Shown piece after piece: positions 15,499 through 64,000 of a DNA stretch of 64,000 nt. A program made the translations under genes and the position numbers. Below the pieces are notes generated by a model, which saw only the letters and a program-made list of their open reading frames with translations, had not been told where the DNA came from and did not search any database. Origin of the DNA: Vigna angularis (lineage: Eukaryota; Streptophyta; Magnoliopsida; Fabales; Fabaceae); contig NC_068973.1 of the NCBI RefSeq assembly GCF_016808095.1, positions 29,630,077-29,694,076 on the forward strand. Reading direction: 5' to 3'. The number at the start of each line of letters is the position of its first letter. The stretch's first letter is position 1.

Positions 15499-15575
<77 letters not shown>

Positions 15576-21475: not shown

Positions 21476-21544
<69 letters not shown>

Positions 21545-26400: not shown

Positions 26401-26462
26401 ATCCAACACCCTTGTTTTAGATATGCCCACCGCCTCATGGCTCATACACCTCATACACTATT
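23461..26462 (+). pseudogene. Athila-like Gag-protease-ORF1 polyprotein, copy 3, truncated
   Basis: This copy carries an in-frame TGA at 25459-25461 where copies 1 and 2 have CGA, just after the protease segment TLQLAD. It also differs by Lys168 to Glu, a Pro-to-Leu change in the ORF1-like domain, and a few silent changes, several of them C to T. The frame then continues to about residue 1000, where a 9-bp duplication (CTCATACAC twice) precedes a join to copia sequence at 26462/26463. The last 200 residues, the 3' non-coding part and the closing LTR are missing. Confidence 0.85.
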
Positions 26463-37342: not shown

Positions 37343-39161
37343 ATGGCACATTTGGATGAAATCCGAGAGAAACAAAGAGCTCGTGGCCCAGCCACCATAC
37401 TCGCCATTGCCAGTGCAAATCCATCCAACTGCATTTACCAATCTGACTTCACTGATTATTACTTTCGAGTCACCAAGAGCGATCACATGACCGATCTCAA
37501 GGCCAAGTTAAAGCGCATATGTAAGATCACCGTTATTTATTATCTATAAATTCATTCATGCACCCTCTCATTATCATCATACTCTCACTGTCTTTGCATC
37601 TTCTACTTTTATACTTCTTCTATTTTACATTATCAACCCACCGTTTCATGCAGACGTGAAAAAGTCTATAAGTGTTTGTATACGTTAAAAAAGAGAGGAG
37701 TAATCATCTTTTCATGATTATCCAAACATGTTATTTTATTATTTAATATTTAATAAAAGAAAATCTTACAAAATGTTAGTGAGTATTGGATTGTTTGTAA
37801 TTTTAAAGGGTGTCTCTGTCCTTTTTTTTCTTCTTATAGATATCTCTTTATAAATGGATAGATAGGCGTCCTCTAAACGCACATATCTATTCAAATATTC
37901 TTCTTTACTGCTTTATATTTCATTAAATATTAAATAACATAAATAGTATATTGTAAGTGATATTATTATATAGTTTTATGGTGCCTTTTTTTTACTATTT
38001 TGAAGTATTTATATGTATCAGTGCTCTATCTGTTTTTCTAACTCTCTCGTCTCTCCCTTCCTATCACTGATCATATGTTATTCTCTTTAAATTCGGATAG
38101 TAAAATTGATTTTAATTTGAATTAAAATTGAGATAAGAATTTTGGTGACAACAACAGGTGAGAAGTCTATGATAGAGAAACGGTACATACACCTGACTGA
38201 AAAAATGCTGAAAGAAAACCCCAACATAAGCACGTACGAGGAACCATCGTTGGATGCACGACAAGACATACTGGTTGAGGAGGTTCCTAAGCTTGGTGAG
38301 AAGGCAGCATCTAAAGCCTTAAAGGAATGGGGCAGGGCAAGATCAGATATTACTCATCTCATATTTTGCTCCACCTCGGGCGTAGACATGCCTGGTGCTG
38401 ATTACCAACTTGTCAGGCTCTTAGGCCTCAAACCATCCACCAAAAGGTTCATGTTATACCATCAAGGTTGTTTTGCTGGTGGCACCGTGCTTCGTCTCGC
38501 TAAAGACCTTGCTGAAAATAATGTTGGAGCACGCGTTCTCGTGGTGTGTTCTGAGATCACAGTTGTCACCTTTCGTGGACCCTGTGAAACACACTTGGAC
38601 TCGTTGGTGGGACAAGCACTCTTCGGAGATGGAGCTTCATCAGTGATCGTGGGATCTGATCCTGACACAGCCATCGAACGGCCACTGTTTCACCTTGTCT
38701 CGGCATCGGAGACGATTCTTCCCAACTCTGAGGGGGCAATTGAAGGACACCTGCGTGAGGTGGGGCTAACTTTCCATCTTAAGGACAACGTTCCTCAGTT
38801 GATCGGAGATAACATAGAGAAAAGCCTTGAAGAAGCATTTCAGCCACTCGGGATCAGTGACTGGAACTCGTTGTTCTGGGTAGCGCACCCTGGTGGCCCT
38901 GCAATCTTGAAGCAGATAGAAGCGATGCTTGGCTTGAACCCTGATAAATTGAGAGCGACGAAAGAGGTTCTGAAAGAGTATGGGAACATGTCGAGTGCAT
39001 GTGTGTTGTTTATACTGGATGAGATGAGAAGATGGTCCTTGGAGGAAGGGAAATCAAGTACTGGTGAAGGACTGAAGTGGGGTGTTCTGTATGGGTTTGG
39101 CCCTGGCTTGACCATGGAGACCATTGTTTTGCATAGCGCCGCCATAGACCCAAAGAACTAG
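37343..39161 (+). CDS. CHS: Chalcone synthase-family type III polyketide synthase
   Basis: Chalcone synthase condenses p-coumaroyl-CoA with three malonyl-CoA to give naringenin chalcone, the entry to flavonoids; legumes use it for anthocyanins, isoflavonoid phytoalexins and nodulation signals. Exon 1 is 37343-37520 and exon 2 is 38158-39161. The 637-bp GT-AG intron splits Cys60, the conserved intron position of this family. The 393-residue product has catalytic Cys164 ([12 protein letters not shown]), Phe215 (ALFGDG), His303 ([10 protein letters not shown]) and Asn336 ([11 protein letters not shown]). Thr132, Ser133, Met137, Thr194, Thr197, Gly256, Phe265 and Ser338 are also in place, as is GFGPG at 372-376. 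Differences from typical chalcone synthases are Ser at 131, MLYHQGC rather than MMYQQGC, and SDWNSLFW. These also occur in stilbene synthases, so product specificity is not certain. No frame damage is seen. It stands alone among transposons. Confidence 0.93.
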
Positions 39162-39927: not shown

Positions 39928-42777
39928 AACAATACCGAACGACTTACAACATTACAGAACGGACGCGCAAGGCCGCACGTCCCACAAGAAATACAAAATA
40001 AAGTCGAACGTACAAGAAACCTGACCGAACGGCTTACACAGGAAACAATACCGAACGGTCTTAACAGAAATGAAAACAAGAGGTGGTCGAACGACCACTC
40101 AAACCAACAACTAATAGCCGAGCGTCTCATTGCTCGGTCTTCACTTCAACTTCTATCAAGTTCTCTTCGTTCAGCGCCTCTTCCAAACGCTCGTCTCCCT
40201 CTGCTCACATCCACACGGATGATCATTGCAATGACAAGACGGACGTACAAAAACGAGACAACACAAGGAAAAGCGCAGGGTAAGCTTATGTAATTTAACT
40301 CATGCATCAACATACAAATTCAAGTAAACAATCCATCACACATCAACACAATTTAACATACGTTCAAGATAATACTCAACACTAGACTGACCGTCCGGAC
40401 TGTATGAATTCTGTGTAGTTTCGGTGTTCGTGCACCCGGGTGATGTAGTAAGTGGAACTCTCATCAGCTGCCACCCGAGGTTAGCCCTATCTGTCCAAAT
40501 AACCACCAGGACTAGGACCTCCTACCGTTCCCACGCATGACGTACCCCCTCTACGTGAGGACGAGTACTCACGGAACATCAGGATGAACGACCGGCTAAG
40601 CTTACCACATCCATACTTTACAATTTCAATAATCAAATCCTGAGTCATTCCTCCCCAGAACGCTCGTTCAAAAGTCAAAACTTTCCATTCATCTCATATA
40701 CTTTTCATCATTTACTATTCATCATTTACTATGAAATACCGAACGTTCTATCCCAAGGAGACCGAGGACGAACGTTGTGAGCGAGACCAAAAGACGTACG
40801 TTCAGATCAGAATGCCAGAGTCACAACTACGTTCGGGAATAATCAAGTAATGTACTGTTTTATTGGACGAACGTTTTCTACCATGAAGATCAGCTGAATG
40901 AACAAACTCTCGGGAATTTGGACCGGTACCTCAAGAATAATTTAAGTGAGAAAGGCTCTAGGCCGAACACATCAAATGCGAACGTCTCAGTAATGACCGA
41001 GCGTAGAAATCTAAAGTTGAGCGTACGCTAATTTGCGAGAAAAGAGTACGAACGCTCAAAATAATACCGAGCATCATTTAGGTCGAGCGCTCAGTATAAG
41101 ACCGAGCCTCATTTAGAGCGAGCGCTCAGTATAAGGCCGAGCCTCATTTAGAGCGAGCGCTCAGTATAAGGCCGAACACTCCTCAGTACGAGCGCTGGTG
41201 TGAGACCGAACGTTATTCTGGACGAACGTCAGGTGTGAGATCGAACGTTTAATAACTTAAAGTAACCGAACATGATAAATTTACTAAGGGACTTTTGAAG
41301 AAGTGGTTACGAACGGGGAATCTACTATTTCATATATATGTATATACAATTACAAAAGAAGGAAGTTTATAAAAAATATCAGATTCAACAAAACTTGGCC
41401 GAACGCTCAAGCGGAGTATTTCAACAGGAGGACGCTCGTCCTCAACTAGGATTCCATTCGGATGATAGAATCCCATTCCCATTTTGTTCACCAAGAAAAC
41501 CGAACAGTCGGTGACCATTCAATCACGAACGTACAGGCAAAGTATTTTAGAACGAGGACGCTCGTCCTCAACAAGAGTTTTATTCGAGAGGACAGGAGTA
41601 ACATTTCAACTACGTTACAAGAGAAACACCGAACGGTTAATGACCGTCCAGTACGAACGTACATTTTCATGGGAAATTCTTTTACCATTCATTTTCATTC
41701 CAGTTCTCATAGTTTCATACATTCATATCAACATCAACTTCCATATTTCATACGATCCATATCATGTAAATTCACATATTTCATTTCACCAAAACAACGA
41801 ACGTTCATGCATTTAAATCACATCCAAATTATCATGTATTATTCTCATGCAGCAAATAACGAATGTTCACATCATCCAATTTCATCAAACATCGTACATT
41901 ATACTCATACGAACGTTCATACAGCATACATCAAACGAGTTAAATTAAATAAGCTTCCCTTACCTCTTAGATGACCGAACGTCCACAGACGCACAAAGAC
42001 ACTTCTCCACTCACAGATTCTACTCGTCAACGCTCGTTAGTCCACTACACGAACGAACCCCAATACCAAAATTCAGAACTACTCCACTTTAAGAAAGATG
42101 ACGAACGCACAACTCAGAATTGAGTTTGCATGCATGGAAAACGAACGTCAGAGAGGAAGGAAGGACTTACCAGCTTCACTAACCGAACGTTCTTCTCTGG
42201 AAGTCCTTACGCCGAGCGTCCTTCAACGGTGTTGGAATTCTGGTCGAAGAAGATGGAACGGTGGTTTCCTTTGAGAGAAGGTGCAGAGAGCTTTGAGAGA
42301 AGGTTCAGAGAATGCAAAGAGAAGGAAGAGAGAAAGAACTCTCAGAAATAGCACAGGGATGGTGCGGCCAGAGGGAGTGGGGAATATTTCAGAACTCAGC
42401 TTTTGCTTCCCACTCCCGCCGAACGCACGTTCACTCTGGCAGGCACATGTTCGGTCTCTGACTGCCCATGCCGGACGGTCGTCCAATCTAAGGTTGCCAC
42501 GTGTTTTCCACCATTGTCGAACGCACGTTCTTACGCTGGCAGCACGTTCTTCACTGACGTTTCTGACTGCCATGCTGGACGGACGTCCACTCCCGGGCGG
42601 ACACGTGTATCCCACTACCAATTTCCACTACCGGTTCTGACTCAGCTTGGCGTGCGGCAGCTGGCGTCCGTCAGTGGGGCGTCAGACGCTACAGTCTCCA
42701 CGTGCGCTGCCGAGGTGGCTCGTTCTGCGCTCGCCACGTGGACTCCACCGAGCGGACGTCATTTCCGAGGCCTGACA
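39928..42777 (-). repeat. 3' LTR of the Tekay/Del-like chromovirus
   Basis: About 2.85 kb remain. The minus-strand start is TGTCAGGCC at 42777; the far end near 39928 is truncated. The LTR is packed with CGAACG-type decamers (ACCGAACG, GAACGCTC and their complements). A 36-bp unit containing GAGCCTCATTTAGAGCGAGC is repeated about three times at 41066-41175. A duplicated segment around GACGCTCGTCCTCAAC lies at about 41430-41640. Confidence 0.82.
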
Positions 42778-47502: not shown

Positions 47503-47986
47503 GTGACATCCCAAAAATACAGGTATAAACCATATAATTAGAAAATCACTTTTAATAATAATTCGAAACAATTTTTCCAACTAAAAACAAGAATCAAAAA
47601 CGAGAACGAACGAACGCTCAAGGACGAACGTCCTTGAGCACTGTCTTACAACATTACAGAACGGACGCGCAAGGCCGCACGTCCCACAAGAAATACAAAA
47701 TAAAGTCGAACATACAAGAAACCTGACCGAACGGCTTACACAGGGAACAATACCGAACGGTCTTAACAGAAATGAAAACAAGAGGTGGTCGAACGACCAC
47801 TCAAACCAACAACTAATAGCCGAGCGTCTCATTGCTCGGTCTTCACTTCAACTTCTATCAGGTTCTCTTCGTTCAGCGCCTCTTCCAAACGCTCGTCTCC
47901 CTCTGCTCACATCCACACGGATGATCATTGCAATGACAAGACGGACGTACAAAAACGAGACAACACAAGGAAAAACGCAGGGTAAG
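47503..47986 (-). repeat. 5' LTR remnant of the chromovirus
   Basis: Only 484 bp of the LTR end remain. It starts TGTGACATCCC on the plus strand and matches the left LTR up to GCAGGGTAAG. There the left LTR continues CTTATGTAATTT, whereas this one gives way to the TGTCGCAACC end of the Tat-like LTR. Confidence 0.85.
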
Positions 47987-48625
47987 TGTCGCAACCGGAA
48001 AAAATCACGACGGGACGACGATCCGTAAAAAATAAGATAACGATTTTGAAAAAGAGATTTTGGAGTCGCCACCATAGTTTATTCTGGAAAACTACGGAAA
48101 AACCATAAAATGATAAGGCATGGTCAATTAGAACCAGATTCTTGGTTCGGGAGTCGGTTACGTGTAGGGAAGGTATTAGCACCCTACAACGCCTGACCTA
48201 AGGCAGTACCTTTAACTAAATGCGCGAATATGGATGTGGTTTTCAAAATGTTTAACTTTCCCTTAAAATAAAACTCTAAAGAAACAAACAATATTTTTTA
48301 GTTTTTTGGGCCCGACAAGGATTGACCTTGCTCCTACGTATTCTCATTCAGAATGAGAAATCAGGGTTCCGTAGTTCATTTAGAAACTGTTTGAGAAATT
48401 TGATTGGAAAATTGTTTGAGAATTTGTTATGGATAATTTGGATTTTTGGGAGAGTGAGCCTGACAAGGTCTAGCCTTGCTCCTACGTATCTCCACTTTTG
48501 ATGGAGAATCAAGGATCACGTAGTTCTGGCAAGGCGATATTTTTGTAGTTTTGAAAAAGTGAATGTTTTTTAGTTTTTGATGATTTTATATTTTTTGGTA
48601 TTTTTGTTGTAATATTTATATTTTT

Positions 48626-48958
48626 TGCGTAATGAGTACTAGGCTGATGCATACGATCGCACGAGCACTCACACGGCTTTTACCTTTTATTGTTTTGCGT
48701 AATGAGTACTAGGCTGATGCGTACGATCGCACGAGCACTCACACGGCTTTTTCCTCTTATTGTTTTGCGTAATGAGTACTAGGCTGATGCGTACGATCGC
48801 ACGAGCACTCACACGGCTTTTTCCTTTTATTGTTTTGCGTAATGAGTACTAGGCTGATGCGTACGATCACACGAGCACTCACACGGCTTTTTCATTTATT
48901 TTATATTTTGGGCAATAAGTACTAGGCCGATGCGTACGATCGCACGAGTACTCATACC
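48626..48958. repeat. 70-bp minisatellite, about five copies
   Basis: Units beginning TGCGTAATGAGTACTAGGCT start at 48626, 48696, 48766 and 48836, with a diverged fifth copy after about 48908. Each unit contains GATGCGTACGATCGCACGAG. Confidence 0.9.
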
Positions 48959-49033
48959 AATATTTTTATCATTAAATGTTTTTTAAGTTTTATATTATTT
49001 TTATTATTTTTTATTCATTTTTTTGTAATTTTT

Positions 49034-49290
49034 GAAGAAAGAGAAAAGGTTTTTGGCACAACGACGATGCGTGCGATCACACATGTGCCTAAACCTTTAA
49101 AAATATTTTTGGGATTTTGAAGAAAGAGAAAAGGTTTTTGGCACAAGGACGATGCGTGCGATCACACATGTGCCTAAACCTTTAAAACGTATTTTTGTAA
49201 TTTTGAAGAAAGGGAAAAGGTTTTTAGCACAAGGACGATGCGTGCGATCACACATGTGTCTAAACCTTTAAAACATATTTTTGGGATTTT
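49034..49290. repeat. 85-bp minisatellite, three copies
   Basis: Units start at 49034, 49119 and 49205 with GAAGAAAGAGAAAAGG and contain GACGATGCGTGCGATCACAC. That core is nearly the same as the core of the neighbouring 70-bp repeat. Confidence 0.88.
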
Positions 49291-51934
49291 GTCAAATTCA
49301 TTATTATTATTATTTTATTTATTTATTTTTGTGATTTTTGTTCATTATATAAAAAAAAGTGAGTGTGTGCAGTGTTTGATAAATAAATAAGACAAACACA
49401 GTACAGAGGGATGGGGGTTATCATACAAGGGGATTACATAATAAAAACCAACTAAAAAGAAAACAAGAGCAAAAGAAAAGCCAGGAATAGAGGTACAGAG
49501 ATAAAACCATGGGTGCGTGCTGGGGTTCCTTTAATTGGGCCAAAAATCCTTCTCTTCAACCACTTTGTATCCGTCCAGGTGTAAGGATGAAATTTGGAGG
49601 TGTTGCCTGAAATGTGCCTTTGAGGTCCCATTCTTTTCTTCTCTTCTTTTTTTTTTAATTGTTTGCACCGAATGGGCTTAGAACACTCCAGAATTCTTCC
49701 CTTCTTCATTCTAGAGTCCAGCCAAAGGAGAGACCTCCTTCCACTCGCGCATTCGACCGTCGCCAGCTACAAACCAAGACGTTGCCCAGCCAGTGCCGTC
49801 GCTCTCGGTCCATCCGGCCACTGCAAACCTCCCTCGACCGTTCTCAGCATCGTCGGCGACCTCAGGCACCACCGCAACCGCTGCCGACAGCGGGTCACTG
49901 CCTTCTCTCTTTCTCGTCTCCTCGCCGTGGGTGATGGTATGAGGGGAGCATGGTTGGGAATAATGAGCTGAGGGGTGGAGGAGAATGGATGGAGATGGTG
50001 GAAGGGAGTTCACGGGTGTTGGAGATGATTGAAGAAAAATGGTAGGGATGGTTACGGACGGATGATAAATTCAGATGAATAAAAATGGTCAAGGTTATTT
50101 AAGGTTATGTGTGTGGGAGAGTAGATACGGGTTATTGGTGAGATGATCAGAGGAGTTCGGTAGGGAGTTTGCCAGTGGGGTATATCGATGCATATGTGGG
50201 TGATGAGCAGAGAGGGATCAGTGGATGGATGGAAATGAAGTTTGAGGTTAGGCCGTGATATCTGGTGAATGAAGATTAAGATGATGGGTTGATGAACAGG
50301 GAGGGATATAGCAGTGAGTCTGGGCGGAGATGAAGGTCAGAGGTGTTAGGTGTTAAGGATTAAGTGTGGAAGTGAAGCCCGTGAAGTTAGGATGTTGAAG
50401 ATGGTGTTGGAGGTGATCGGGATGAAGTTGAAGATGCTGGCCGCAGGGTAAGGATGAAGATGGTGGGTTGAATATGGGCGCTAGAGATGGTTGTGAGGTA
50501 ATAATGGGTATATACAAACGTCCACAGCACTAGGAATGTGTTCAACAACAATCATATGCAAACATAACGATAGCCAAACAGAGATATGATGAAAAGCCAG
50601 CAACCAATGCAAACATAACAATAGCCAAACAAAGATATCATGGAGAGCCAGCAACCAATTCACTAAAACATGGAGTGCAAGACATCACTTACCTTTTGAA
50701 GCTTGGTTCGCTCTTTTGATGACTCGTCAGATGGATTCTCTCTCCTTTTGGCTGACTCTCCTTTTCCAGTATCACCTTCTTTTTGTCTTTGTCTGAGTCT
50801 CCCTTCCTCTTAGTCTTGCTGAGGGGAGTGTTTTTCTTGATGTGTGGCTGACTCTTCAGAGTGTCCTGTCTCTGTATCTCGGATGGTCTCCCTGTCTGCC
50901 TCTCCTTGGTGAGAATGGAGTTTAGAGTTCGACCATGGTATATGGATAAAGATGATGGTTGACGGGAGATGTGGTGGAGGTAGCGAGTGTGTTGGGAAGA
51001 AGAAAAAGTGGTTTGGATGGTTACGGGTGTTGATGATGAAAAGGGAGAGGGATGAAAATGAATGAAGAATGGTCAGAGGTGTACCGATGATTTGGTGAGG
51101 GAGTGGGGATGAAAATGATGGTGAGGTCCCGTTGGTATGAGGTGTTGGTAGTGGTGTTCGAAATGAATATGCAGAGGTGATGAAGTTGGAGCTTTTGTCT
51201 GGTTTTTTTTTAGGATGATAGGTGTAGTGAGTGATGGTCCTGTAGTTATGAGGTGTTCGAGGGTGGCTGTCACAGTGGGTGAATATGGATGGAGATGATA
51301 ACTGAGTGAGGGAATAAGGATGGAAATGATGGTGAGGTCCCCCCCGTGTGAGGTGTTGGAGATGAGAGGTTATTGATGATATGTGTTGAGAGGGAAGGCC
51401 CCCACATCCATGAAGGACCGAGATTTTTTCTGATCAAGAAGCCAGGGCTAAAGATGATCGGTTGGCCGTTCTTTTCGATCCCCCCTCCAGCTCTTGAGTA
51501 TTGTAGTGGTGTAGCAGGCTTTACAGAAGTGCAAGGTGGGCACCGTACAGAGGTGCCAGATGGGCGCTTGTGGAAGACAAAACCCGGTGGAAGTCTGTTG
51601 ATGATCCACTAATAAACCTGTCCACCATAGTAGACCTCCACTACCTTGTCCACTGATTCATAAAAATATATCTTCTGGTGGCTTGGTTGGTGATGAGTGG
51701 AGCACTCATTGAAGTGGGATGGTGGAAGTTGTTACGGTGGGGAATCATTAGTGAAAGATTGGAAGTGGGATGGTGGAAATCCAGCAAATTGATTCTCCTC
51801 TTCTCTTTTAAATGCCAGAAACCCATACTGTGAGTAGCTTTTCAGATGGTTAATGGCAGACAGCGGCAGCTGAAGGTGGGAATCTTCGCTGTAATGCTCA
51901 GACGAATTTTAAAATGCAGCCACCACTACTTTTT

Positions 51935-52400
51935 GGACGCTCGGTCAAATACGGGAGCCTGCTACCAAAACGAACGACCGTTCACGAAGATGAACGAACG
52001 CTCAGGCCAAACGTTCACAAGGTAAAACAAACTGGTCCAGGTCGAATGCTAACAGTCACCAAAACCCCAAACGCTATACTGGACCGATCGCTCAAAACCG
52101 AACGCTATACTGGACCGATCGCTCAAAACCGAACGCTATCACAATGAGACCGAATGTTCAAACACACATAACTAAGACCGAACGTCCAGACGAAGAGCGA
52201 ACGCTCATTAAAACAAACGCTTAAACACCTGGGGCCAAGGATGACCGAACGGTTGAACATAAGAATTGCCGAACGTCCAAAAAGCATGAATGGCGGTCGA
52301 GTAAGATACTTGAGTATGACCGAACGGCTGAGCACGAGCGGCTGAGCATCATTGAGGTCGAATGGGCGAGCGTTATGGGACGAACGGTCGAGTGCGAACG
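51935..52400. repeat. CGAACG-motif cluster within the Tat-like LTR
   Basis: Many irregularly spaced copies of ACCGAACG, GAACGCTC, ACGAACGG and related decamers occur, including a 27-bp near-repeat around GGACCGATCGCTCAAAACCG (about 52080-52137). The same motif family fills the chromovirus LTRs in this window. Confidence 0.7.
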
Positions 52401-52522
52401 TTTTTCCTCTTCTCTCCTTTTTTTTTTGTTATTATATATTTTTTTTGTATTTTTTGATATTTATTTCTTTTTTATGAAAATAAATTTTATTTAATCAACC
52501 CGGACGAAATTGAGTGTTGACA

Positions 52523-52538
52523 GCTGCCCCTCTTTACT
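52523..52538 (-). promoter_or_regulatory. Polypurine tract of the Tat-like element
   Basis: The minus strand reads GTAAAGAGGGGCAGC immediately before the TGTCAACACT start of the LTR. Confidence 0.65.
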
Positions 52539-52837
52539 TAGATTTTACTAGATCATATGACAAACAATGTTTTCATATTATCAAAGTAAAAAATAAGTAA
52601 AGATAGAAATATTAATTTCGTCTGGGTTTCAAGATAAACAAGAAACAAACAGAGAATAAAACAAATGAACAAAACTGAGAGAATTGAAGTGTGACAACCT
52701 CGCGGAGGGTGTACCAACGCTATGGATGAAGTGAACCAGGAACAAATTTTTGTTTTGTTTTTTTCTTTTTTTTTTTTGAGTGCATAAATAAGATGAACAA
52801 GATTAAGTGAATGAGAAATTTGAATTTGATTGGGTTC

Positions 52838-53221
52838 GACCACTGCCATGCAGAGGGTCATTTGAAAAAATTAAAATCTGGATTTGACCATTGTCATGCA
52901 GAGGGTCGTCTGAAAAAAATAACATCTGGACCTGACCATTGCCATGCCGAGGGTCGTTTGAAAAAATTAACATCTGGACCTGACCATTGCCATGTAGAGG
53001 GTCGTTTGAAAAAATTAAAATCTGGACCTGACCATTGCCATGCAGAGGGTCGTTTGAAAAAATTAACATCTGGACTTGACCATTGCCATGCAGAGGGTCG
53101 TTTGAAAAAATTAACATCTGGACTTGACCATTGCCATGCAGAGGGTCGTTTGAAAAAATTAACATCTCGACTTGACCATTGCCATGCAGAGGGTCGTTTG
53201 AAAAAAATAAAAATTGGGCTC
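52838..53221. repeat. 48-bp minisatellite, eight copies
   Basis: Eight exact-length units start every 48 bases with GACCATTGCCATGCAGAGGG. Because 48 is a multiple of three, both strands show long repeat-encoded open frames (16-residue periods), which I do not regard as genes. Confidence 0.92.
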
Positions 53222-54149
53222 GACCATTGTCTTACAGAGGGCCGAGATACCAATGGCAGAAAGTAAAATTGGGCTCAACCATTGTCTTACAGAGGGCCGA
53301 GATACCAATGGCAGAAAGTAAAATTGGGCTCGACCATTGTCTTACAGAGGGTCGAGACACCAATGACAGAAAGTAAAATTGGGCTCGACCATTGTCTTAC
53401 AGAGGGCCGAGACACCAATGGCAGAAAGTAAAATTGGGCTCGACCATTGTCTTACAAAGGGCCGAGACACCAATGGCAGAAAGTAAAATTGGTCTCGACC
53501 ATTGTCTTACAGAGGGCCGAGACACCAATGGCAGAAAGTAAAATTGGGCTCGACCATTGTCTTACAGAGGGCCGAGACACCAATGGCAGAAAGTAAAATT
53601 GGGCTCCACCATTGTCTTACAGAGGGCCGAGACACCAATGGCAGAAAGTAAAATTGGGCTCGACCATTGTCTTACAGAGGGCCGAGACACCAATGGCAGA
53701 AAGTAAAATTGGGCTCGACCATTGTCTTACAGAGGGCCGAGATACCAATGGCAGAAAGTAAAATTGGGCTCGACCATTGTCTTCAGAGGGCCGAGACACC
53801 AATGGCAGAAAGTAAAATTGGGCTCGACCATTGTCTTACAGAGGGCCGAGATACCAATGGCAGAAAGTAAAATTGGGCTCGACCATTGTCTTACAGAGGG
53901 CCGAGATACCAATGGCAGAAAGTAAAATTGGGCTCGACCATTGTCTTACAGAGGGCCGAGACACCAATGGCAGAAAGTAAAATTGGGCTCGACCATTGTC
54001 TTACAGAGGGCCGAGACACCAATGGCAAAAAGTAAAATTGGGCTCGACCATTGTCTTACAGAGGGCCGAGATACCAATGGCAAAAAGTAAAATTGGGCTC
54101 GACCATTGTCTTACAGAGGGCCGAGACACCAATGGCAGAAAGTAAAATT
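53222..54149. repeat. 55-bp minisatellite, about 17 copies
   Basis: Units start with GACCATTGTCTTACAGAGGG and continue with CCGAGACACCAATGGCAG. The spacing is 55 bp except for one 54-bp unit. The array follows the 48-bp array with no gap and in the same register; the first 23 bases of the two units are clearly homologous and the rest differs. Confidence 0.92.
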
Positions 54150-55008
54150 GTTGGATTGTTTTGAAACTGAAATTTTGGAATTTGTTGAAATTTTGAGAAA
54201 TTTTTTTGATTTTGATTTTGATTTTGATTTTTTTTGAAAATTTTGCATAAGGTTGAAATTAAGAAACAAGGTGTTGCATTTTTGTACAAGGATTTTGATT
54301 TTGAAACCTCGATGTGCAAGAGAAACATGGTTGATGTAAATTTTGATATTTGGAGAAGAAAACTTTGATGCATGTTGATTTTTTTTTTGTCTTTTTGAAG
54401 GAAGAAAATTTGATGAAATTTTGAAATTGGAGAGGAAAACTTTGATGCATTTTTTTTTGTCTTTTTGAAGGAAGAAAATTTGATGAATATACATGGAGGC
54501 AAATTCAAAGTTGATGAAAATATGTACATGATGTGATTTTGTGCAATGGAAAACTATGGTATATTTTTTTTTGAGTCAATTTGCTTTCTTTGAAATCATC
54601 AAATTTATGACGATTTAGACTTCCAATTTCCTTTTAAATGGATGTCCAATTCTGAAGTCAACTGTTCAAAATGAAGCTTGTGTGCTACACATTTCTTGAT
54701 GAGATACCAGTGTGTATATATGTTTGATACCAGGGGTTGGTTAAAATGAAGGGTTTAAGGGAGACTGAGACGGCCTCTTTTTTTGGGCATTCCATTCCTA
54801 ATACAATCATCCATGATTGATATAATATGTGAATGTGAATGTCAATGTGAAATATGATATACCCAAAGGTTACCCCAGTTTGGTGTTTGGGAAAAAGTGT
54901 GAGGGAGTAAGTTATGAATCAAGGTGTGAGAATGTCATGTGAGATTTGCAAAAAATTGCCCCAATTTTGGTTGTAATGGATTTATGAAATTTGGGGCGAA
55001 TCAGGATC
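54150..55008. other. Non-coding 3' region of the Tat-like element
   Basis: T/G-rich DNA without a gene. A unit of about 85 bp containing TTTTTGAAGGAAGAAAATTT is repeated twice at about 54340-54490. The text around 54945-55008 (TTTGGGGCGAATCAGGATCA) continues on the far side of the nested element at 59604 and has a close copy there. Confidence 0.5.
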
Positions 55009-55013
55009 ATGCG

Positions 55014-58000
55014 TGTAACATCCCAAAAAAAAAAATTTGCCCTTTTAAAATTCAAAAATTAAAATATACAATTACGGTAACACCCCGAACCTCAAGCTCA
55101 AATCTATACAAAAGTTTACAGCTCAGACTTAACAGTAAAGATAACATTGAATCCTTCTAATACATTCTTCCATCTCTTCCTGCACTTGCACCAGATCACG
55201 CGACATTCCTTCATCTGCTCCCGTATAACAAAAACGTTATACGATCATCGCAAAAATATGATTTTCCGATACATGCACAAATAAGTAAGGGTGAGCTAAC
55301 ATGCAATAAAACATTTATAAAATATGCATAAATGCTTTGATATAAACATCATATAATACTTAGGTTAGACATCCCCATATACCAACCTACCAAAATTCCT
55401 ACTAGACACACATACGGATGATATATTGATGAGCTACTGGACAAAGCTATTCCCCAAACATTCTAAATGGATACTATTTGGACGGACGCTATCTGCCGAA
55501 CACTATCTGCCGAGCGCTATCCGCCGAATGCTATCTAATGAATATTATTAGACTGAATCCCATTTGAACGAACGCTAGGTGATCATGCACAATTGAGCCG
55601 AACGCTAAACTCTGAAAACCATAATGACCGAACACACTCATAATGAACACTGAGATCAAACACTAGGCCGAACGCTAGAAACCGAACGCCAGATCGAATA
55701 CTGATTGCACGATCGTTAAGATTGATCACTTAGGCTCGACACTAGACACCAAACGCTATTAGACCGGATACCATTAGGTCGCACACCAAGAGACTGAATG
55801 CTTAGTAAGATCAAACACTTAGACTTCACGCTGAGACAGCGCACTCTACTAGAACAATTACTATTATTTCGAACACTAATCAAACGATCGCTCAAAGATC
55901 AAATCTCGCGCGCCACAGATTAAGTACCATTCGGACGAACACTTAATTGATCACTTTACTGGATTTAACACTATCTGAGGGTAACCTCATCGAGACCGGA
56001 TGTTCCCTACGTACGACCACTAACCGTTAACAATCCTTGTCTGAGACAAGCGTCATCCAAACCGAACACTACCTATGAATGATCACTGCCTGAATCATGC
56101 ATCATCACGACTAATCACTATTTATTAATCTATCGCTACCTCAACGAATATCAAGGCCGGTCACTCCTCATAAATGATTGCAACCTCAGAGCAACATCAT
56201 CAATAAAGATCATTCTCTAAGAACCATCGCTACAAGACAGAACACTAGAATAAAGAACGCTTGAGTATGGATTAAACGCCTAGAGTACTCTACTGAACAC
56301 CTCAGTACTGACCGAACGTAATCAAACTAAACCACAGGGTACCAAATTAAGATCAGACGCTAGCTACCCCAGAACAACTAACCTCAAGATCAACTGTTAC
56401 ATATTAACGCTTGCTACCTGAAAATAAATAATACCAAGACCGAACGTCACTAATAATAACGCACGCTACTACCTATAGACCCAACAAGTTTTACTTCCCG
56501 TCTCTCTCGAAGAATTATTCCAAATCCAGCTTTATCTGCTCTACCATTTCTCCCGTACCAGCACGATTATCACGGGTGGAAACCACAGCCACAACATGCA
56601 AGATGAATAACCAGAAGTATCACATCATAACCCATTACATATAAACTATAACAATTCCCATGATAAATCGACCCACATGACGATGCAAACTAGTCTATCA
56701 TAAACTAATGTCGTTTACTTGTAATTCGTCGTCATAACTTGCTCTCAATAACAGGCGACCCGAGCCGTCTTCCATCGCGACTTCAGACCTATCTCCCCGA
56801 CTCCTCAAGGACTAACGAGTAAAAACATCGATACTACGCGTAACGATGCACTATACTCAACACGAGCCGAAGTCATTGGGCGAGACATTCACCTCCTCGC
56901 GCAGAAGAAGGTGACACTCGAATCTCAGTCTCACGCGTGAGACTAGCAAAAATACTCAAAAGTCGAACGAAGTTACAAGTAAATAACAAAAAACATAGTG
57001 TATGTACCACCTCCAACAGAATAAACGTGCTCAATCACAAATTCATACATATTCTCAATAACATGTATAAATAAACCAATATTGGATCAAGGAAATAACC
57101 ACAATTCTCAATAATTGTTTCAAAATACTCCCACAGATTCATACATTATTGCCGAACGCTATTTCCAACTCTGATGTTGTCTGAACGAACGTTCTGGAAT
57201 CAATCATCAACAAAGGCCGAACGCTGCCGATGAACACCAAACCTTATTAACCGAGCTCCAAGGACGAACGCTCGAGATCAAGTCTAATCGTACTTTACCT
57301 CTGACAAGTACTTCCTGAGGATTAACATCATCGAGAACGGACGCTCACAAACACAATTAAACCAAGGTCGAACGCCCAAGATCCAAACCGAACACTTAAA
57401 GCCGAACGCTCAAGATTGCTACCCAAGAATTCCAAGTTAAGAACGAACGCTTATACCCACTAATATCTCAATACCGAACACTCAATTCAAACACCATTAA
57501 TCCGGACACGATAAGGACGAACGTTTTGATACTTAGTCGAACCCCTAGGTCACTTTGTCGAACGGCATTAAAAGAAGCCTGACCGAACGACATAAATCAA
57601 CAGCTAACCGAACGGTGCTAAAATCAAAACTTAACCGATCAGCAGAAACTAACGACCGAACGCTCATTAGTTGCTAATACCCCAAGGCCGATCGTTCAAG
57701 ATTCAAAACTTAAGAATAAGCAACTTAAAAACCGAACGCTCACTTATACCCAAAAACTGAACGCTCACTTATACCCAAAACCGAACGCTCACTTATACCC
57801 AAAACCGAACGCTCACTTATACCCAAAACCGAACGCTCACTTATACCCAACAACCGAACGTTCAGGATTCAAACCTAAGATTCTATTTTTAAGAACGAAC
57901 GACTGCAATCACTAATACTCAATATCGAACGCCCAAGATTTCTTCTTGTGGATGCCAATTTAGGGACGGACGCTCAAGTTGAAACCTGGATTAGCAATTG

Positions 58001-59079
58001 CTAACGAACACTCACAATCTGAACAACAAGAATACTAAACTAAGTGCGGACGCTTAACATCTCTAATACCGAACCCTCAAAATAAATACTATTAATCCAG
58101 ATACCATTTGGACGAACGTTTTGAATCTTGATCGAACCCCTAGTTCACTTTGCCAAACACCTAAAGTATTGGACGATCGTCTAGAATCCTGGCCGAACGA
58201 TTTAATCGAACAGTGTTAAATTCACACTTAATCGGACACTATCAATTTAGATTTCAACCGAACGGTATTAAAATAAGCCCTGACCGAACGCTAATATCAC
58301 TATTTCAAACCAAGGACGAACGCTAATGCTTGCTAGCTTTAAATGACCGAACGTTCCAAAACTGGCTGACCTTGGTCGAGCACTATACGGACGAACGTTC
58401 TAAGTTGGCTGATTCGGGCGGACGCTCAGAACAATTACCGAACGTTCAGAAATTGGTCGACCACTATTTGTTCGAGCACTGCTGGAATGAACGTCCAATT
58501 TTGACTCATCAAAATTGGACGTACGCGCATTCTGGAGAATTCTGCAGAATCGTGCAGATTCTAGAGAAAACCCAGAAACCCCTATCTTCATCCCCTTCTT
58601 CCCAAATTTTACCCAGATTTGCAGCAACACAAAATATCTCAAAAATCAAGGAAATAAATCAAACTCCCCTTACCTCTTGAAGACTTCCTTGTAAATTTTG
58701 GGATCTATCTCCTCCCAGATGTGCAGATCAAGATCTCCTTGCAACCTCAACAATTCTTCACTTCCTCTCCCAGATCTTGCTGCAAGGACTCCACTCTCAC
58801 CAGATGCCCAACCCAGATCATCCTCTCAGTCCTTCTGAAGTTGGTATAGCTTCCCATGGGTGCTCTTTGGGCGGCTGGAAACGGGAGAAAGGGTTCCCTC
58901 CCTCTGGCTACGCTCTCTCTCTCTCCCTCTCCCTCTCATGCCAAAATGAATCCCTCCCCTTTTGCAAAGCTTCCCCCGTAACAAAGTACCTCCAATAATT
59001 GCTTCCAATAATGAAAAAGGTGGGTAACCACCATGTCCCCACCATGTCCCCACCACTCCTAAAAATACAGGTTCTTACA
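55014..59079 (-). repeat. Long CGAACG-rich LTR of the nested chromovirus
   Basis: The ends are TGTAACATCCC and GGTTCTTACA on the plus strand. It has no supportable gene but dozens of CGAACG-type motifs between about 55480 and 58520. A 24-bp unit (CCGAACGCTCACTTATACCC) is repeated five times at 57729-57855. The CT-rich stretch near 58900-58940 is simple sequence. Confidence 0.8.
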
Positions 59080-59603
59080 TTCTCCCCAACAACAAAAATT
59101 TTCGTCCCCGAAAATTAAGCCTATCGAAACTAGTCAAGATAAGTTTCTCTCATCTCATCCTTAAAATTTTTCACTTAACTTAAAGATCCTAACAGTATTT
59201 CATTCTGCTTTAAAGAACTTATGTTCTGTCTTATCTAACTGCCTCTCGAAATCCTCTCAAACCTTGCTACAACCATGCTTGACTAAAACTTCTCCTAATC
59301 TAACCTCTGAACTTCTTGCAAACATACGATATATAATTTTCTGACCTTATTTCTTGAAAATTTCTTCACCCAAAACATTACTTCTAAGCTCCAATACCTT
59401 CACCCGTCCATGAATCTGCATCCCTCTACTACTATAGAGCATAATACACCACCACAAAAGCAAGAGCGAAACAGGAATTACTACAAGAAACAACACTGGA
59501 ATTCTAACTCTCTCTTATCTCAAACCTTCAGAATTAAGAAAGGAAAATCATCTATGGTAAAAGTCATGAGTGTGCACCACTCCTAAAAATACAGGTTCTT
59601 ACA
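55014..59603 (-). mobile_element. Nested chromovirus-type LTR element, nearly all body and one LTR deleted
   Basis: The 5-bp target duplication ATGCG (55009-55013 and 59604-59608) is exact. A full LTR of 4066 bp (55014-59079) is followed by a purine tract (minus strand GTTGGGGAGAA) and TTTTCGGGGACGAAAATTTT, as at the 3' end of the chromovirus at 42778. After about 500 bp of non-coding internal sequence only the last 29 bp of a second LTR remain (59575-59603, the same sequence that ends the full LTR) before the target copy. Pol, primer site and most of the 5' LTR are gone. The element is therefore between an intact element and a solo LTR. Confidence 0.82.
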
Positions 59604-59608
59604 ATGCG

Positions 59609-61194
59609 AGGCCCAACGAGGGATGCTCCAGCCTTGGTAGTTATAGATTTTTGAAGTTCGGGGCGAACCAAGATCATGCAAGGCCCAACAAGGGATGCCC
59701 CAATCTTTGTATGAGCTTTGAATATTCAAATAAAAAAATTTGAGATTTAACAAAGTTGCTCAATACTCTGAATGGGCCGAAACATATGAAAGTCACAAAG
59801 TTGCCTTGGTTTTGGGTATGAGTCAATTAAGCGAGGTTCAAAAAGAGGTTGCCCCCCACTTTGGGTTTACGAATGATAAGATGGACTCGAAATCATACGA
59901 AGCCCCAAAGTGTCTGCCCCTATTTTGAGGGTGGATCTATGAATTTCAGTGCGCACAAATCTGAGAGGCTCAACAAGGGATGCCCCGGTCTTGGTACGAA
60001 CTTTGAATATACAGATGAAACAAATGTGAGACTAACAAAGTTGCCCCATATTTTGAATGGGCCAAAACATATGAAATAAAGTTGCCCAAAATTGCCCCCT
60101 AGTTTGGGAATCGGGGGAAGAGTTTGAATGGGATTTGAATGTGTTCAGGAAATTGTGATGGATATGGAAAGGATTGGCTTGAAAAGATTGCCCCAATTGG
60201 CTTGATTCTCCTTCATATAATTTTGATCAATAGGGAGTTCCCTTCATCCGAGGACATTTATTCTTCATCATCATTTTTTTTTACAACTGCATTGTTGGTC
60301 ATTTTTGTCCTGTCTCAAAATTAAGCTTTATGAAAATTTAAGCAACTAGTATTCAATCCGTGTGGACTTTTATTGGGCTTGTAATGTGGCTTGGGCTAAA
60401 GGGTGTTGAAAGAAAGGATATAAAGGCTCAAATACATGTTTTTGGGTTATTTGAAACAATAGTTACCATATACACCTTGTATCAGCTACTCTTCAAATAT
60501 GTTTTGACTATTTTGTCCTTTCTCAAATTTCATTCTTTGTTTGCCATCACTTTGTGATTTTTCCATTTTTGCTTCACTTTTGAGGAATTCTCTTCATTTG
60601 ATCAACTAAGTGTGTTCCTTTGCAATTTGAGTTGGCTTCTACTGTGATATCAAAGGATATATTTTGTTTTTTTTTCGGATGAAGAAAGATGGCCACACAT
60701 CATTTCAAATTTTGGTTGTTTCATTTTCAAAAGATTAATTAGGAGACAAGACAAAAATGATTTCAACAAGAGTCATTTTTCATCCTTTTTCTTCTTCTTT
60801 TTTTTTTTTGTCATAACGGATTCCAGGATCTCCCAAATGAAAGCCAGTGGAGGTAACGGAAAATCTGTCCCAGTGTAAAACTTTGTGTCAATTATTTGGG
60901 CTCAAGAACATGATTGGGTCAATCTTTGGTTTGGTGAAGGTTGAAGGATGATGTTTTCAAGCAATGCACGCACATATATCTCTTAAGAATATGTGGTTTG
61001 ATCATTTGACTCCAGGAGATTATGACATCCATTACATTTTTTGAAATCTCATTAAAATGGATGATTTGCATCGAAAATAATTGACTCAAATTTTGCGTAT
61101 TTTTTTTTATTCTATGCATGAAGAAAAGTAATATGAAATGAACATGATGATACTAGTTGAAAAACAGATTTTTTTTGTTTTTTTTTTTTTGAGA
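59609..61194. other. Non-coding 3' region of the Tat-like element with diverged long repeats
   Basis: Variants of AGGCCCAACAAGGGATGCCC and of AACAAAGTTGCCCC with TGAATGGGCCGAAACATATG recur near 59604-59810 and 59960-60090, marking a repeat of roughly 290-320 bp. No gene is supported; the open frames of 60-76 codons here show nothing recognisable. Confidence 0.5.
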
Positions 61195-61535
61195 AAATTG
61201 GGCTTTGTGGACCAGCCTGGAAATTGGACCTTGCGGGCCGGTGTAGAAAATGGGCTTTGTGAGCCATTGTGGAAATTGGGATTTCTCGGCCAACGGAAAC
61301 TGTGCCTTGCGGGCCAGCATGGAAACTGAGCTTTGCAGGCTAGTATGAAAAATGAGCTTTCTGGGCCAATGTGGAAATTGATATTTTTCGGCCAATGTGG
61401 AAACTGGGCCTTGCGGACCAGCATGGAAACTGGGCTTTGCAGGCTAGTATGGAAAATGAGCATTTCTGGGCTAAAATGGAAACATGGGCTTGGGGACCAG
61501 TGCAGAAACTAGGCTTGGTGAGCAATGCAAAAATT
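61195..61535. repeat. About 30-bp degenerate minisatellite, roughly 11-12 copies
   Basis: Units resemble TGGAAATTGGGCTTTGCGGG followed by CCAGCA and are about 29-31 bp long. The near-30-bp period keeps frames open on both strands (for example repeated KAQFPCW on the minus strand), which I treat as a by-product. Confidence 0.75.
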
Positions 61536-61799
61536 GATATGAGAAAACTTGATTTAGAAAAACGTTTAAAAAATAAAATGTTTTTTTTCATTCATTTTTT
61601 ATTTATTTACATAATGTGAAAAATATTAAACATATTAGAAAATTTTTTATGTTTTTATCTTTTAGAAATAGAAATTAATGAGAAATATGCATGTAATGGG
61701 CCGAGTTGGGCCAAAAAAAAAAGTTTGAACATTTTCAAAAAAATTTATTTCGATTTGATTTTTTTTTTTTTAAAAAAAATATCAGTACCGATACCAGAC

Positions 61800-62559
61800 G
61801 GTTGCAGCGACCGGAACTGTAGCTACAGTGGATTTGCTCGACTATTAAACGGGTATCCCTTCGGCGTCCGAGCGACATTTCCCGATCTCACTCTCTCTCT
61901 ATCCCTCTCTCTTTCTCTTGAGCGTCTGAGTTCTGCGAGGCTCCTCCGTCCCCGCCTTCAACAACGTCTGAGTCTTCCGAGGAACTTCTCCCTGTGTGCC
62001 TTCCACTTCCGGGTAAGTCTTCTGAGCTCTTAATCTCTCTTCTCTCTTTCTTTCCTTCCCGTTTCCTTTTCTTAAGTTTTCCGCTCTTCCTCTTCCCTTC
62101 CCTTTATGCTTTCCCACTTTCCTTTTCTTTCTTGCTTCCCCTCTGTTGTTCTTTCTTGAGTCCTCTTTCTTCTCATCTTTTTCAATTTTTTCATTTTTCT
62201 AAACTTAAAACACTTAAAACACAACTGCCTTAAAACTTAAGGGGTATATAGGCTGGAAACCAGACGTTAATCTCCCTTCGATTGAAGGTATGGCAGAGAC
62301 AATCGGGTAGAACAACGCCACGTACCCCATTTAAAACTAAATAAACACAGAAACTTAATTTACATTAACAACAAGGACAAGGACAACTGGACATAGATCC
62401 GTTTAGGACCCTTTTGCAAGGACCGTGAAACAGATCTGAGACAAGACACTGAAATATCAAAGACTGATTGGACAAAATAAGCCTAAAAGGAAACAAAAAC
62501 AAATAAAGAAAACACTGAATATTTTTTTTTTGTTTTATTTTTTTTTTTTTATGTTTTAG
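61800..62559 (+). promoter_or_regulatory. Putative leader exon and 5' UTR intron of the homeobox ORF
   Basis: A GC-richer stretch (about 61790-61870) is followed by a CT-rich leader, CTCTCTCTATCCCTCTCTC and onward, to a consensus donor CCGG/GTAAGTCT at 62013. A long T-rich tract and ATGTTTTAG/A form a good acceptor at 62558-62559, 18 bases before the ATG at 62578. This gives an intron of about 547 bp in the 5' leader. No clear TATA box stands out; ATTAAA at about 61845 is only a weak candidate. The leader and intron are predicted from splice signals alone. Confidence 0.45.
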
Positions 62560-62577
62560 AATACTTCGAGAGGAAGG

Positions 62578-63114
62578 ATGAGTGAGATGGAAATAGAGAG
62601 ATCCACCTGTCAGCGGTGGCGTCCTACTGATGATCAGATCAAGATAATGACCAACATATACAATTATGGGGTCACACACCCAAGCAGAGCCCAAGTCTTC
62701 GAGATCGCGTCTCGACTAAGGACCTTCGGAGAAGCCAGCGAATATAACGTGCAATGCTGGTTCAACAACCATGGCAATCGGGTCAGGCGCCTGCAAGCGG
62801 AGATCGACCCCACTGGCACTATCTTTTCCCTGCTGCCGCGATACATGTATGGTAAGAACTCTGATCATATCTCTTTTTTTATTGAAATTTTCTCTTCCTC
62901 TTCTATTATTGACAACAAATTTTTGTTGAAAGAATATGACTGGGTAGTTATGAGGGCACCGAGGCTGCTGGATCTGTTCCCCATTCCGATCATCATCGAC
63001 GACGAAAGAGATGAACGACAAATCCCTCCACCTATGCCTCCTGCATTCTGTACCAGAGCTCCCTCGACGGAGCTTACCTTAAGATCGCCACCCAGTAACC
63101 ATTTTCCATTTTAA
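62578..63114 (+). CDS. Divergent WUSCHEL-type (WOX) homeodomain protein
   Basis: WOX proteins are plant transcription factors that maintain stem-cell and meristem identity. This 178-residue frame has a homeodomain at about 11-73: RWRPTDDQIKIM matches helix 1 of WOX proteins, ASRLRTFGE the stretch before helix 3, and NVQCWFNNHGNRVRR helix 3, where typical members have NVFYWFQNHKAR. LLDLFPI (130-136) resembles the WUS box and ELTLRS (165-170) an EAR-like repressor end, so it fits the WUS clade by layout though not by close identity. A possible 81-bp intron (62852-62932, GTAAGA to AG) lies in frame, so spliced (151 aa) and unspliced products are both open. It is short for the family and lies antisense to the Tat-like element, with minisatellite DNA upstream. 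It may be a captured gene, an element-encoded antisense ORF, or a host gene engulfed by repeats. Confidence 0.75.
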   Translation: MSEMEIERSTCQRWRPTDDQIKIMTNIYNYGVTHPSRAQVFEIASRLRTFGEASEYNVQCWFNNHGNRVRRLQAEIDPTGTIFSLLPRYMYGKNSDHISFFIEIFSSSSIIDNKFLLKEYDWVVMRAPRLLDLFPIPIIIDDERDERQIPPPMPPAFCTRAPSTELTLRSPPSNHFPF

Positions 63115-64000
63115 AGTTTTATATTTTTAGTTTTTTTTTATTACGGTCTGTAATATTAACGATCAGCATTGATCGAACCCCGAACATCTTTATTATGTTT
63201 TGATTTTTTTTTTGTGTTTTATTTGAATTCCAGGTGTGGTGAGGTAACTTTGTATCCTATCTGTTAGATATATTTGTTTTTTTATTGCATTTTTATTTTA
63301 ATTATCATAATACCAAGATCGTATGAGTGTATTCAAATTGGTAACCTTGTTCAAAATCAACTCTCTGTCCTTGCTGTAATTTTCTGCTCTGATGATGAAA
63401 TAAAATAGATCTTATGTTTTTTTTTTATTCATTCAGTCTAAACAAAATTTCTAATCTAAACGAAAAAATGGAAAAATGGGTCCAAAAGAAAATAATTTAT
63501 TTACAAAGAAAATAAGGAAAAATGACTTCGAATAAAATGAGATCCGAAGTGAACGTCATGAGCAAAATTTTGAACCATTATGCATATGAGACAATGCAGA
63601 AATGGGAAGAGAGGAACAATGAACTCCTAAAACAATTTTGAACAATTTGAAATTTCGATGACCCCCTTTTTTTTTGAAAATTTTTTTTTTATCCTCTTTT
63701 TGGTGTAATGAAATCGGACTCAAGCAAAAGCTTTATAAAAAAAACGATTTCAGCCCTTTTTTTTCGAGTTAATTGTCTTACTTGCAGTCATCAAACTGGT
63801 CATTATTTCCAATGCTTAGAAAAGTGAGGAATGTCACACATCCGAGGTCTAACTTTGGGATTATTACATTTTGACTTTTTCTCCTGAGACATCAACGTAC
63901 ATATGCTTGAACAGACTCGCAAGTGAAAAATGGGAGTTGTTTAGAATGGTTTGGAAGATAATGGGATAGCCATGCTAACATGTCACCTCATACGCTCTGT
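63115..64000. other. AT-rich sequence after the homeobox ORF
   Basis: No further gene, LTR or clear repeat is visible up to the window end. T-runs and AAAATTT-type simple sequence are common, as in the region left of the homeobox ORF. Confidence 0.45.

What the first reader, a model, noticed from the sequence alone, without database searches (positions are those of the whole stretch)
61800..63114. A WUSCHEL-type homeobox gene lies antisense within the apparent 3' region of a Tat/Ogre-like retrotransposon
Seen: an open frame with a WOX-pattern homeodomain (RWRPTDDQIKIM, NVQCWFNNHGNRVRR), a WUS-box-like LLDLFPI and an EAR-like ELTLRS, preceded by good splice signals for a leader intron. It lies on the strand opposite to the flanking LTR element, past its purine tract and minisatellite-rich 3' region. 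Known: Tat-lineage elements have been reported to carry extra ORFs between pol and the 3' LTR, some antisense. Inference: a developmental transcription factor domain may have been taken up and spread by this element, or may act as an element-encoded regulator.
Basis: partly seen in the sequence, partly recalled or inferred. Interest (0 to 1): 0.88.

Follow-up and report, generated by a model that had tools for sequence, protein, structure and literature searches.

The report
Retrotransposons carrying a WUSCHEL-like gene
In adzuki bean, jumping elements carry, in reverse orientation, an intact gene that looks like a plant stem-cell master regulator, and the gene looks preserved by natural selection, so the elements may use it.

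Summary
Window 62578-63114 (+) encodes a 151-aa WOX protein after one splice: WUS-type homeodomain, WUS-box-like LLDLFPIP, EAR-like tail. The genome is Vigna angularis. In three protein searches 58 of 58, 66 of 67 and 38 of 42 hits are V. angularis (the rest other Vigna); gene names place the family on 10 chromosomes.

The window gene lies antisense inside an LTR element whose left end (47987), 3' LTR (52522-47987, minus) and purine tract are in the window. A second copy on C9 is colinear from the LTR to past the gene and has a tRNA-Arg-type primer site. A third sits antisense in a complete 10.6-kb Athila-like element (LTRs 99.88% identical, target duplication GTTAG, gag, no pol). Between window and third-copy genes dN/dS is 0.20 (bootstrap 0.11-0.33). 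The second copy's gene is far more diverged than its flanks, suggesting exchange of the gene cassette.

So the gene is most likely selected accessory cargo of LTR retrotransposons. Not shown: a Tat pol, expression, function, genome-wide copy number. The genome search tool did not complete; the two C9 copies come from limited sampling.

The parts
47987..52522 (-). 3' LTR of the WOX-carrying element (family T); starts TGTCAACACTCAATTTCG at 52522, outer end at 47987 (..CGACA)
   Evidence: Ends homologous to the C9 copy-1 5' LTR (52420-52522 and 47987-49033). Outer junction: a gypsy LTR repeat (47645-47986, 98.8% to 39943-40284) breaks off exactly here, while its sister continues; predicted TSD GTAAG.
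52523..52535 (-). Polypurine tract AAAGAGGGGCAGC
   Evidence: Identical tract and LTR junction at C9 copy 1
52536..61194 (-). Long 3' region of the element with 48- and 55-bp minisatellites (52838-54150)
   Evidence: Colinear with C9 copy 1 at 70-84% identity; tandem repeats
55014..59603 (+). Nested LTR-type insertion TGTAACATCC...TTCTTACA with TSD ATGCG; not part of the WOX cassette
   Evidence: TSD seen; empty site in C9 copy 1
61195..61533 (.). 26-bp minisatellite upstream of the gene
   Evidence: its translation appears upstream of WOX exons in four V. angularis gene models, P0022, P0047, P0057, P0058
61811..61849 (+). Promoter core: palindrome ACTGTAGCTACAGT (61816), then TATA-like TATTAAA (61843; TATAAAAG in C9 copy 2)
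   Evidence: Palindrome region found in all three copies, 3 mismatches allowed; positions; sequences
61850..62012 (+). Leader exon (start approximate), donor GT at 62013
   Evidence: Leader spliced to coding exons in gene model P0058; leader also matched in P0047
62252..62287 (+). Optional second leader exon
   Evidence: AGNQTLISLRLK in gene model P0032, by reading
62560..62851 (+). Exon 2; ATG at 62578; homeodomain codons 62614-62805
62852..62932 (+). Intron, 81 bp, GTAAGA...GAAAG
   Evidence: Spliced exactly so in 13 of 22 aligned family models
62933..63114 (+). Exon 3 coding part: WUS-box-like LLDLFPIP and EAR-like ELTLRS, stop at 63112-63114
63117..63606 (.). 3' flank of the gene shared with C9 copy 1 (72.8%): the element continues past the gene

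Best explanation
A WUSCHEL-type homeobox gene has become accessory cargo of LTR retrotransposons in Vigna. Shown: the cassette (promoter core, leader, two coding exons, 3' flank) sits antisense upstream of the 3' LTR in two LTR families, and its protein shows purifying selection in the one pair that could be tested. Inferred: being antisense, its introns survive passage through the element's genomic RNA; it is transcribed from its own promoter and makes a small nuclear WUS-like repressor (homeodomain + WUS-box + EAR-like tail). I think this protein acts in trans for the elements, either binding element sequences to time or limit expression, or acting on host programmes in meristem cells that found the germline. 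My estimates: cargo 0.93; protein maintained by selection 0.85; meristem/germline regulator 0.35.
For: Complete C9 element, C9:14,994,026-15,004,663: LTRs 2,438 bp with 3 mismatches, TSD GTTAG on both sides, tRNA-Asp-type primer site, gag ORF (PF03732, E 3e-5, just above the curated cut-off), open-frame WOX on the opposite strand before the 3' LTR. Window element: LTR, purine tract and gene colinear with C9 copy 1. Minisatellite plus gene in four further gene models. Dispersed family. dN/dS 0.20 over 148 codons, bootstrap 0.11-0.33, maximum 0.41 of 1000 resamples; mismatches by codon position 23, 17, 45. Homeodomain, WUS-box and EAR-like regions less variable than the linkers in 23 proteins.
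Against: Only one complete WOX-bearing element was seen; the window element runs off the window and copy 1 is heavily nested. No expression data. No pol in any of the three copies, so these are non-autonomous copies whose helper is unknown (the window copy's unseen part excepted). Copy 1's gene is broken by a solo LTR. Copy 2's protein has D (NNHDNR) at a homeodomain position that is G in all 22 aligned family-A proteins, so that young copy may be impaired. The selection estimate rests on one pair. EAR is only EAR-like in the window copy (ELTLRS, not LxLxL).
Confidence: 0.8

Rival explanations
1. Passive hitchhiker: an LTR element once captured a WOX gene and copies it without using it.
For: Many gene models are truncated or fused; C9 copy 1 is broken; copy 2 has a change at an otherwise invariant homeodomain position.
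Against: dN/dS 0.20 between genes in two different element families; conserved motifs and splice sites; open frames in the window and in a young element.
Confidence: 0.12
2. Ordinary host WOX family, expanded by duplication in repeat-rich DNA with elements inserted around it.
For: Gene-like structure with introns and own promoter core; several copies annotated as WUSCHEL-related in Vigna.
Against: A gene inside an LTR/TSD-bounded element; shared LTR, minisatellite and leader flanks at dispersed loci; hits only in Vigna in three searches, within their word-based sensitivity.
Confidence: 0.04
3. The gene cassette is itself a small mobile unit that inserts into LTR elements.
For: The same cassette occurs in two unrelated LTR contexts, and gene types do not follow the flanks.
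Against: No terminal inverted repeats around it: the 14 shared 11-mers on the two sides of copy 2 are low-complexity or isolated; in family T the homology continues on both sides.
Confidence: 0.08
4. The antisense RNA, not the protein, is what matters: it tunes silencing or reverse transcription of the element.
For: Antisense transcripts and dsRNA roles are discussed for such ORFs in PMC7264820 (passages read).
Against: Excess of third-position changes and low dN/dS point to selection on the protein.
Confidence: 0.06

Closest known systems
Antisense additional ORFs between pol and 3' LTR (maize Grande gene23, rice RIRE2, Silene Retand, bean PvRetro13); review PMC7264820, passages read
   Same: Antisense orientation, position before the 3' LTR, own promoter reported for Grande; Retand also has tandem repeats (title in the reference list)
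   Different: The review states no clear similarity to known proteins for these ORFs (it mentions an SMC domain in PvRetro13); here the product is a recognisable WUSCHEL-type transcription factor with introns, and no pol was seen in the three copies
Orchid Ogre-related Gypsy_Pa_2799 with an AlkB RNA demethylase ORF; PMC9289625, passages read
   Same: LTR element that fixed a host-like regulatory gene; tRNA-Arg primer site
   Different: Enzyme in a gag-pol element; here a DNA-binding repressor-type protein, antisense, in elements without visible pol. The words homeobox and homeodomain do not occur in that paper's main text
WUSCHEL / WOX family (WUS clade)
   Same: WOX homeodomain, WUS-box-like motif, EAR-like tail
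Ogre/Tat and Athila lineages
   Same: Family T: tRNA-Arg-type primer site, long minisatellite-rich LTR. Copy 2: tRNA-Asp-type primer site, Athila-like gag
   Different: No pol seen, so lineage by reverse transcriptase could not be tested

Membership tests
LTR retrotransposon (C9 copy 2) | Two LTRs with TG..CA ends and a target-site duplication | tested here: met
   2,438 bp, 3 mismatches, TGATGAG..GTATCA, GTTAG both sides
LTR retrotransposon (C9 copy 2) | Primer binding site after the 5' LTR | tested here: met
   TGGCGCCGCTGCCGGGGA, tRNA-Asp type (tRNA identity recalled)
LTR retrotransposon (C9 copy 2) | Polypurine tract before the 3' LTR | tested here: inconclusive
   No classical tract seen in the sequence before the 3' LTR
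LTR retrotransposon (window element) | Both LTRs and TSD | tested here: inconclusive
   3' LTR, purine tract and left end found; 5' LTR would lie beyond 64000
Tat/Ogre lineage (family T) | Reverse transcriptase placement, dual RNase H | not testable with these tools
   No pol found in the window 52-64 kb nor between primer site and gene in copy 1
Tat/Ogre lineage (family T) | tRNA-Arg primer site | tested here: met
   TGGCGACTCCGCTGGGGAC right after the copy-1 5' LTR; Ogre use of tRNA-Arg from PMC9289625; tRNA sequence recalled
Athila lineage (copy 2) | Athila-type gag and pol | tested here: inconclusive
   Gag 44% over 75 aa to the window's ATHILA-bearing ORF; no pol
Antisense additional ORF before 3' LTR | Intact ORF antisense to gag-pol, upstream of the 3' LTR, in several copies | tested here: inconclusive
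   Met for copy 2, antisense to gag; the window by its LTR orientation only; in copy 1 same place but the gene is broken; position after pol untestable, no pol
WOX (WUS clade) | WOX-type homeodomain | tested here: met
   WUS and STF best matches by sequence and fold
WOX (WUS clade) | WUS-box TLxLFPxx (recalled) | tested here: inconclusive
   C-type TLDLFPIP meets it; window type LLDLFPIP differs in the first residue
WOX (WUS clade) | EAR motif LxLxL (recalled) | tested here: inconclusive
   Most B and C types LSLRL; window ELTLRS only EAR-like
WOX (WUS clade) | Developmental function | not testable with these tools
   No expression or phenotype data

The most novel reading that the evidence does not exclude
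Vigna LTR retrotransposons encode their own WUSCHEL-like transcription factor, with changed DNA-contact residues, exchange it between LTR families like a viral accessory gene, and use it to act in shoot stem cells that found the germline, or to blunt WUSCHEL-linked exclusion and silencing there.
Probability: 0.3. Interest if true: 0.96.

Novelty: new variant of a known kind. Interest (0 to 1): 0.87.

Why it matters
Antisense extra ORFs of plant LTR retrotransposons are known from several families, but the 2020 review says no clear similarity to known proteins has been described for any of their products. Here the product is a stem-cell type transcription factor with signs of selection, so the question of what such ORFs do becomes directly testable. 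It also warns that a 'WUSCHEL-related' family expansion reported for Vigna reflexo-pilosa (PMC10357499, passage read) may be transposon copies rather than host genes; that is my inference.

Tried and rejected
Tat pol in the 52-64 kb region: tblastn with five of the window's own Ty3 and copia ORFs gave nothing at E up to 1; three further ORFs there had no Pfam match. The 103-bp match of 52420-52522 at c9x 2432-2342 looked like T-rich chance, then was recognised as the LTR start when c9x self-comparison gave a 323-bp direct repeat at 97%. Donor gene: homeodomain identities to nine recalled Arabidopsis WOX gave no clear winner. Viral and prokaryote contig scans found no relative. First codon comparison of exon 2 with copy 1 failed by a script error and was redone. 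One search ended in a script error after printing its sequences. Rows dropped: for the conservation count 22 full-length family-A proteins plus the window were used out of 58 hits; the tree used 31 rows. At-type LTR pieces in L015 and L019 have no family-A WOX within their 10-kb pieces: solo LTRs or elements without the gene, not resolved; this counts mildly against the gene being fixed in that LTR family. The one extra 10-kb piece left of copy 1 (L028) held an unrelated Ty3 element.

Full report
What is there. The window's right end carries a gene-like unit on the + strand. The coding part is ATG 62578 to 62851, an 81-bp intron, then 62933 to the stop at 63114: 151 aa. It has a homeodomain (PF00046, E 3.8e-7) whose best solved relatives are WUSCHEL and STENOFOLIA. 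An AlphaFold model of a sister protein, P0002 with 28 relatives, gives the homeodomain blocks a pLDDT of 70 to 88 (whole chain 61), and its ten best Foldseek hits are WUS or STF homeodomains, none at E 0.001 or less. After the homeodomain come LLDLFPIP (WUS-box-like) and ELTLRS (EAR-like). Of 22 aligned family models 13 splice exactly at the window's intron, and models P0058 and P0032 carry an untranslated leader that fits the window's donor at 62013 and an optional leader exon.

A dispersed family. A protein search gave 58 hits, all 58 Vigna angularis, in clusters holding 257 member sequences; several assemblies of the species are pooled, so this is not a locus count. Profile searches gave 67 hits (66 V. 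angularis, 1 V. radiata; only the 7992 best candidates were scored) and 42 hits (38 V. angularis, 2 V. umbellata, 1 V. radiata, 1 V. mungo). Of 70 named representatives tabulated, 53 are loci of the LR48 assembly, on 10 chromosomes and 16 scaffolds by their names. Three types differ deeply: A (window), B and C; C is nearest to a textbook WOX (TLDLFPIP, LSLRL). Hits outside Vigna are missing only within the limits of a word-based search.

The window's host. Of the 11 chromosome lengths of the held genome G000, 8 equal contig lengths listed for V. angularis proteins, for instance C1 65,407,200 for P0051 of the HKW66 assembly. The genome search tool did not complete. About 190 kb of arbitrary pieces was fetched; one piece on C9 matched the leader block, and its surroundings were fetched in three small requests.

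Copy 2, a complete element. At C9:14,994,026-15,004,663 two LTRs of 2,438 bp differ at 3 sites, flanked by GTTAG on both sides. The 5' LTR is followed by TGGCGCCGCTGCCGGGGA, a tRNA-Asp-type primer site. Then come a 482-aa gag ORF (44% over 75 aa to the window's Athila-type ORF) and, on the opposite strand, an A-type WOX with an open frame of 151 aa before the 3' LTR. No pol similarity was found in it. At 1.3e-8 substitutions per site per year (a recalled rate) the insertion is about 47,000 years old. Nearly identical proteins (P0024, P0025, P0015: exon 2 98-99%, exon 3 93-100%) are annotated on contigs of different lengths, hence different chromosomes. One result against: copy 2 has D at a homeodomain position that is G in all 22 aligned family-A proteins.

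Copy 1 and the window: family T. Window 52420-61918 and 63117-63606 are colinear with C9 copy 1 at 70-84% identity. Both have AAAGAGGGGCAGC|TGTCAA, a purine tract and LTR start, reading opposite to the WOX gene. In copy 1 the other LTR starts at c9x 2342 and ends at 4857, followed by TGGCGACTCCGCTGGGGAC, a tRNA-Arg-type site as reported for Ogre (PMC9289625, passage). No gag or pol similarity was found between this site and the gene. In the window the outer LTR end is at 47987, where a gypsy LTR repeat breaks off while its sister copy continues, so the element inserted there. The 4,590-bp block 55014-59603 is a later insertion: TSD ATGCG, and copy 1 shows the empty site. Four V. angularis gene models also carry the window's minisatellite, two of them (P0047, P0058) with the leader matched as well, joined to WOX exons.

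Selection. Window and copy-2 genes sit in different LTR families, yet dN is 0.13 and dS 0.65 over 148 codons, ratio 0.20; 1000 codon resamples give 0.11-0.33. Mismatches fall 23, 17, 45 on codon positions 1, 2, 3. Over 23 A-type proteins the mean entropy is 0.31 bits in the homeodomain, 0.19 around the WUS-box and 0.24 in the EAR region, against 0.42-0.76 in linkers, N-tail and C-end. Annotated models are biased to open frames, but that bias alone would not give this pattern.

Exchange of the cassette. Copy 1's gene is C-type (with P0076; split from the A and B types at 100/100), and dS to the window gene is saturated, although the flanks on both sides are about 70-84% identical. The A-type gene is shared with copy 2, whose LTRs and outer flanks do not match the window. 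The simplest reading is that the cassette moved between elements by recombination, for example template switching; this is inference. Copy 1's gene is now broken by a solo LTR with TSD GAGGG in exon 2, and a further LTR element with a tRNA-Asp-type primer site lies between its exons.

How it probably works. Shown: antisense cargo in two LTR families, open frames in two of three copies, purifying selection in the one testable pair. Inferred: the gene's own promoter drives it (a palindrome ACTGTAGCTACAGT, or near-palindrome, before a TATA-like box in the window and copy 2); antisense introns are invisible to splicing of the element's genomic RNA and so persist; the protein enters the nucleus and represses targets. 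Helix 3 reads CWFNNHGNR against YWFQNHKAR in WUS (alignment); from general homeodomain knowledge (recalled) this keeps W48, F49 and N51 but changes contact positions 47, 50 and 54, so its targets may differ. A role in meristems is suggested by the descent of germ cells from shoot stem cells, where LTR elements are transiently expressed (PMC7560203, abstract and passages), and by WUSCHEL's role in excluding RNA viruses there (PMC10589665, passage). That is a hypothesis.

Known or new. Antisense extra ORFs before the 3' LTR are known from Grande, RIRE2, Retand and PvRetro13; the review says no clear similarity to database proteins has been described for their products (PMC7264820, passages). Host-gene uptake into an Ogre-related element is known for an orchid RNA demethylase (PMC9289625, passages). 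I found no report of a WOX or homeobox gene as LTR cargo in the listings of nine searches of the open-access library (a tenth was on another point); subscription papers are mostly missing there. A genome paper on Vigna reflexo-pilosa reports expansion of WUSCHEL-related proteins without linking it to transposons in the passages I read (PMC10357499).

Limits. Copy number, the autonomous partner, expression and the capture event are open. One complete element and one codon pair carry much weight. Two other At-type LTR pieces sampled had no family-A WOX in their 10-kb pieces.

Noticed in passing
window 10047-26449: Three near-identical units (99.8%, spacing 5,977 and 5,969) each with a tRNA-Asp-type primer site; the first unit's 1,205-aa ORF has gag and ATHILA domains, the third is interrupted by a stop. 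Looks like a tandem of pol-less Athila-like elements sharing LTRs.
   Followed up: partly
window 38121-39161: Open frame of 346 aa with both chalcone/stilbene synthase domains (PF00195, PF02797) among retrotransposons.
   Followed up: no
window 61811-61831; L018 581 (-); L026 9890 (-): Conserved promoter element near CCGGAACTGTWGCTACAGTGG, a perfect palindrome ACTGTAGCTACAGT in the window: candidate autoregulatory site.
   Followed up: partly
P0070 (V. umbellata), P0081 (V. mungo): WOX exons fused in gene models to what reads as an arabinogalactan-peptide (my reading) and to a SUI1 domain (Pfam): chimeric transcripts or annotation artefacts.
   Followed up: no
PMC10357499 (Vigna reflexo-pilosa genome): Reported expansion of WUSCHEL-related homeobox proteins may be these element-borne copies (inference).
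   Followed up: no
L028 2163-6668 (-): Single open frame of 1,502 aa, 34% identical to the window's Ty3 polyprotein, at C9:14,952,163-14,956,668.
   Followed up: no
L023 7877-9886 (+): tnp2 (PF02992) transposase ORF of 670 aa between the two C9 WOX copies.
   Followed up: no
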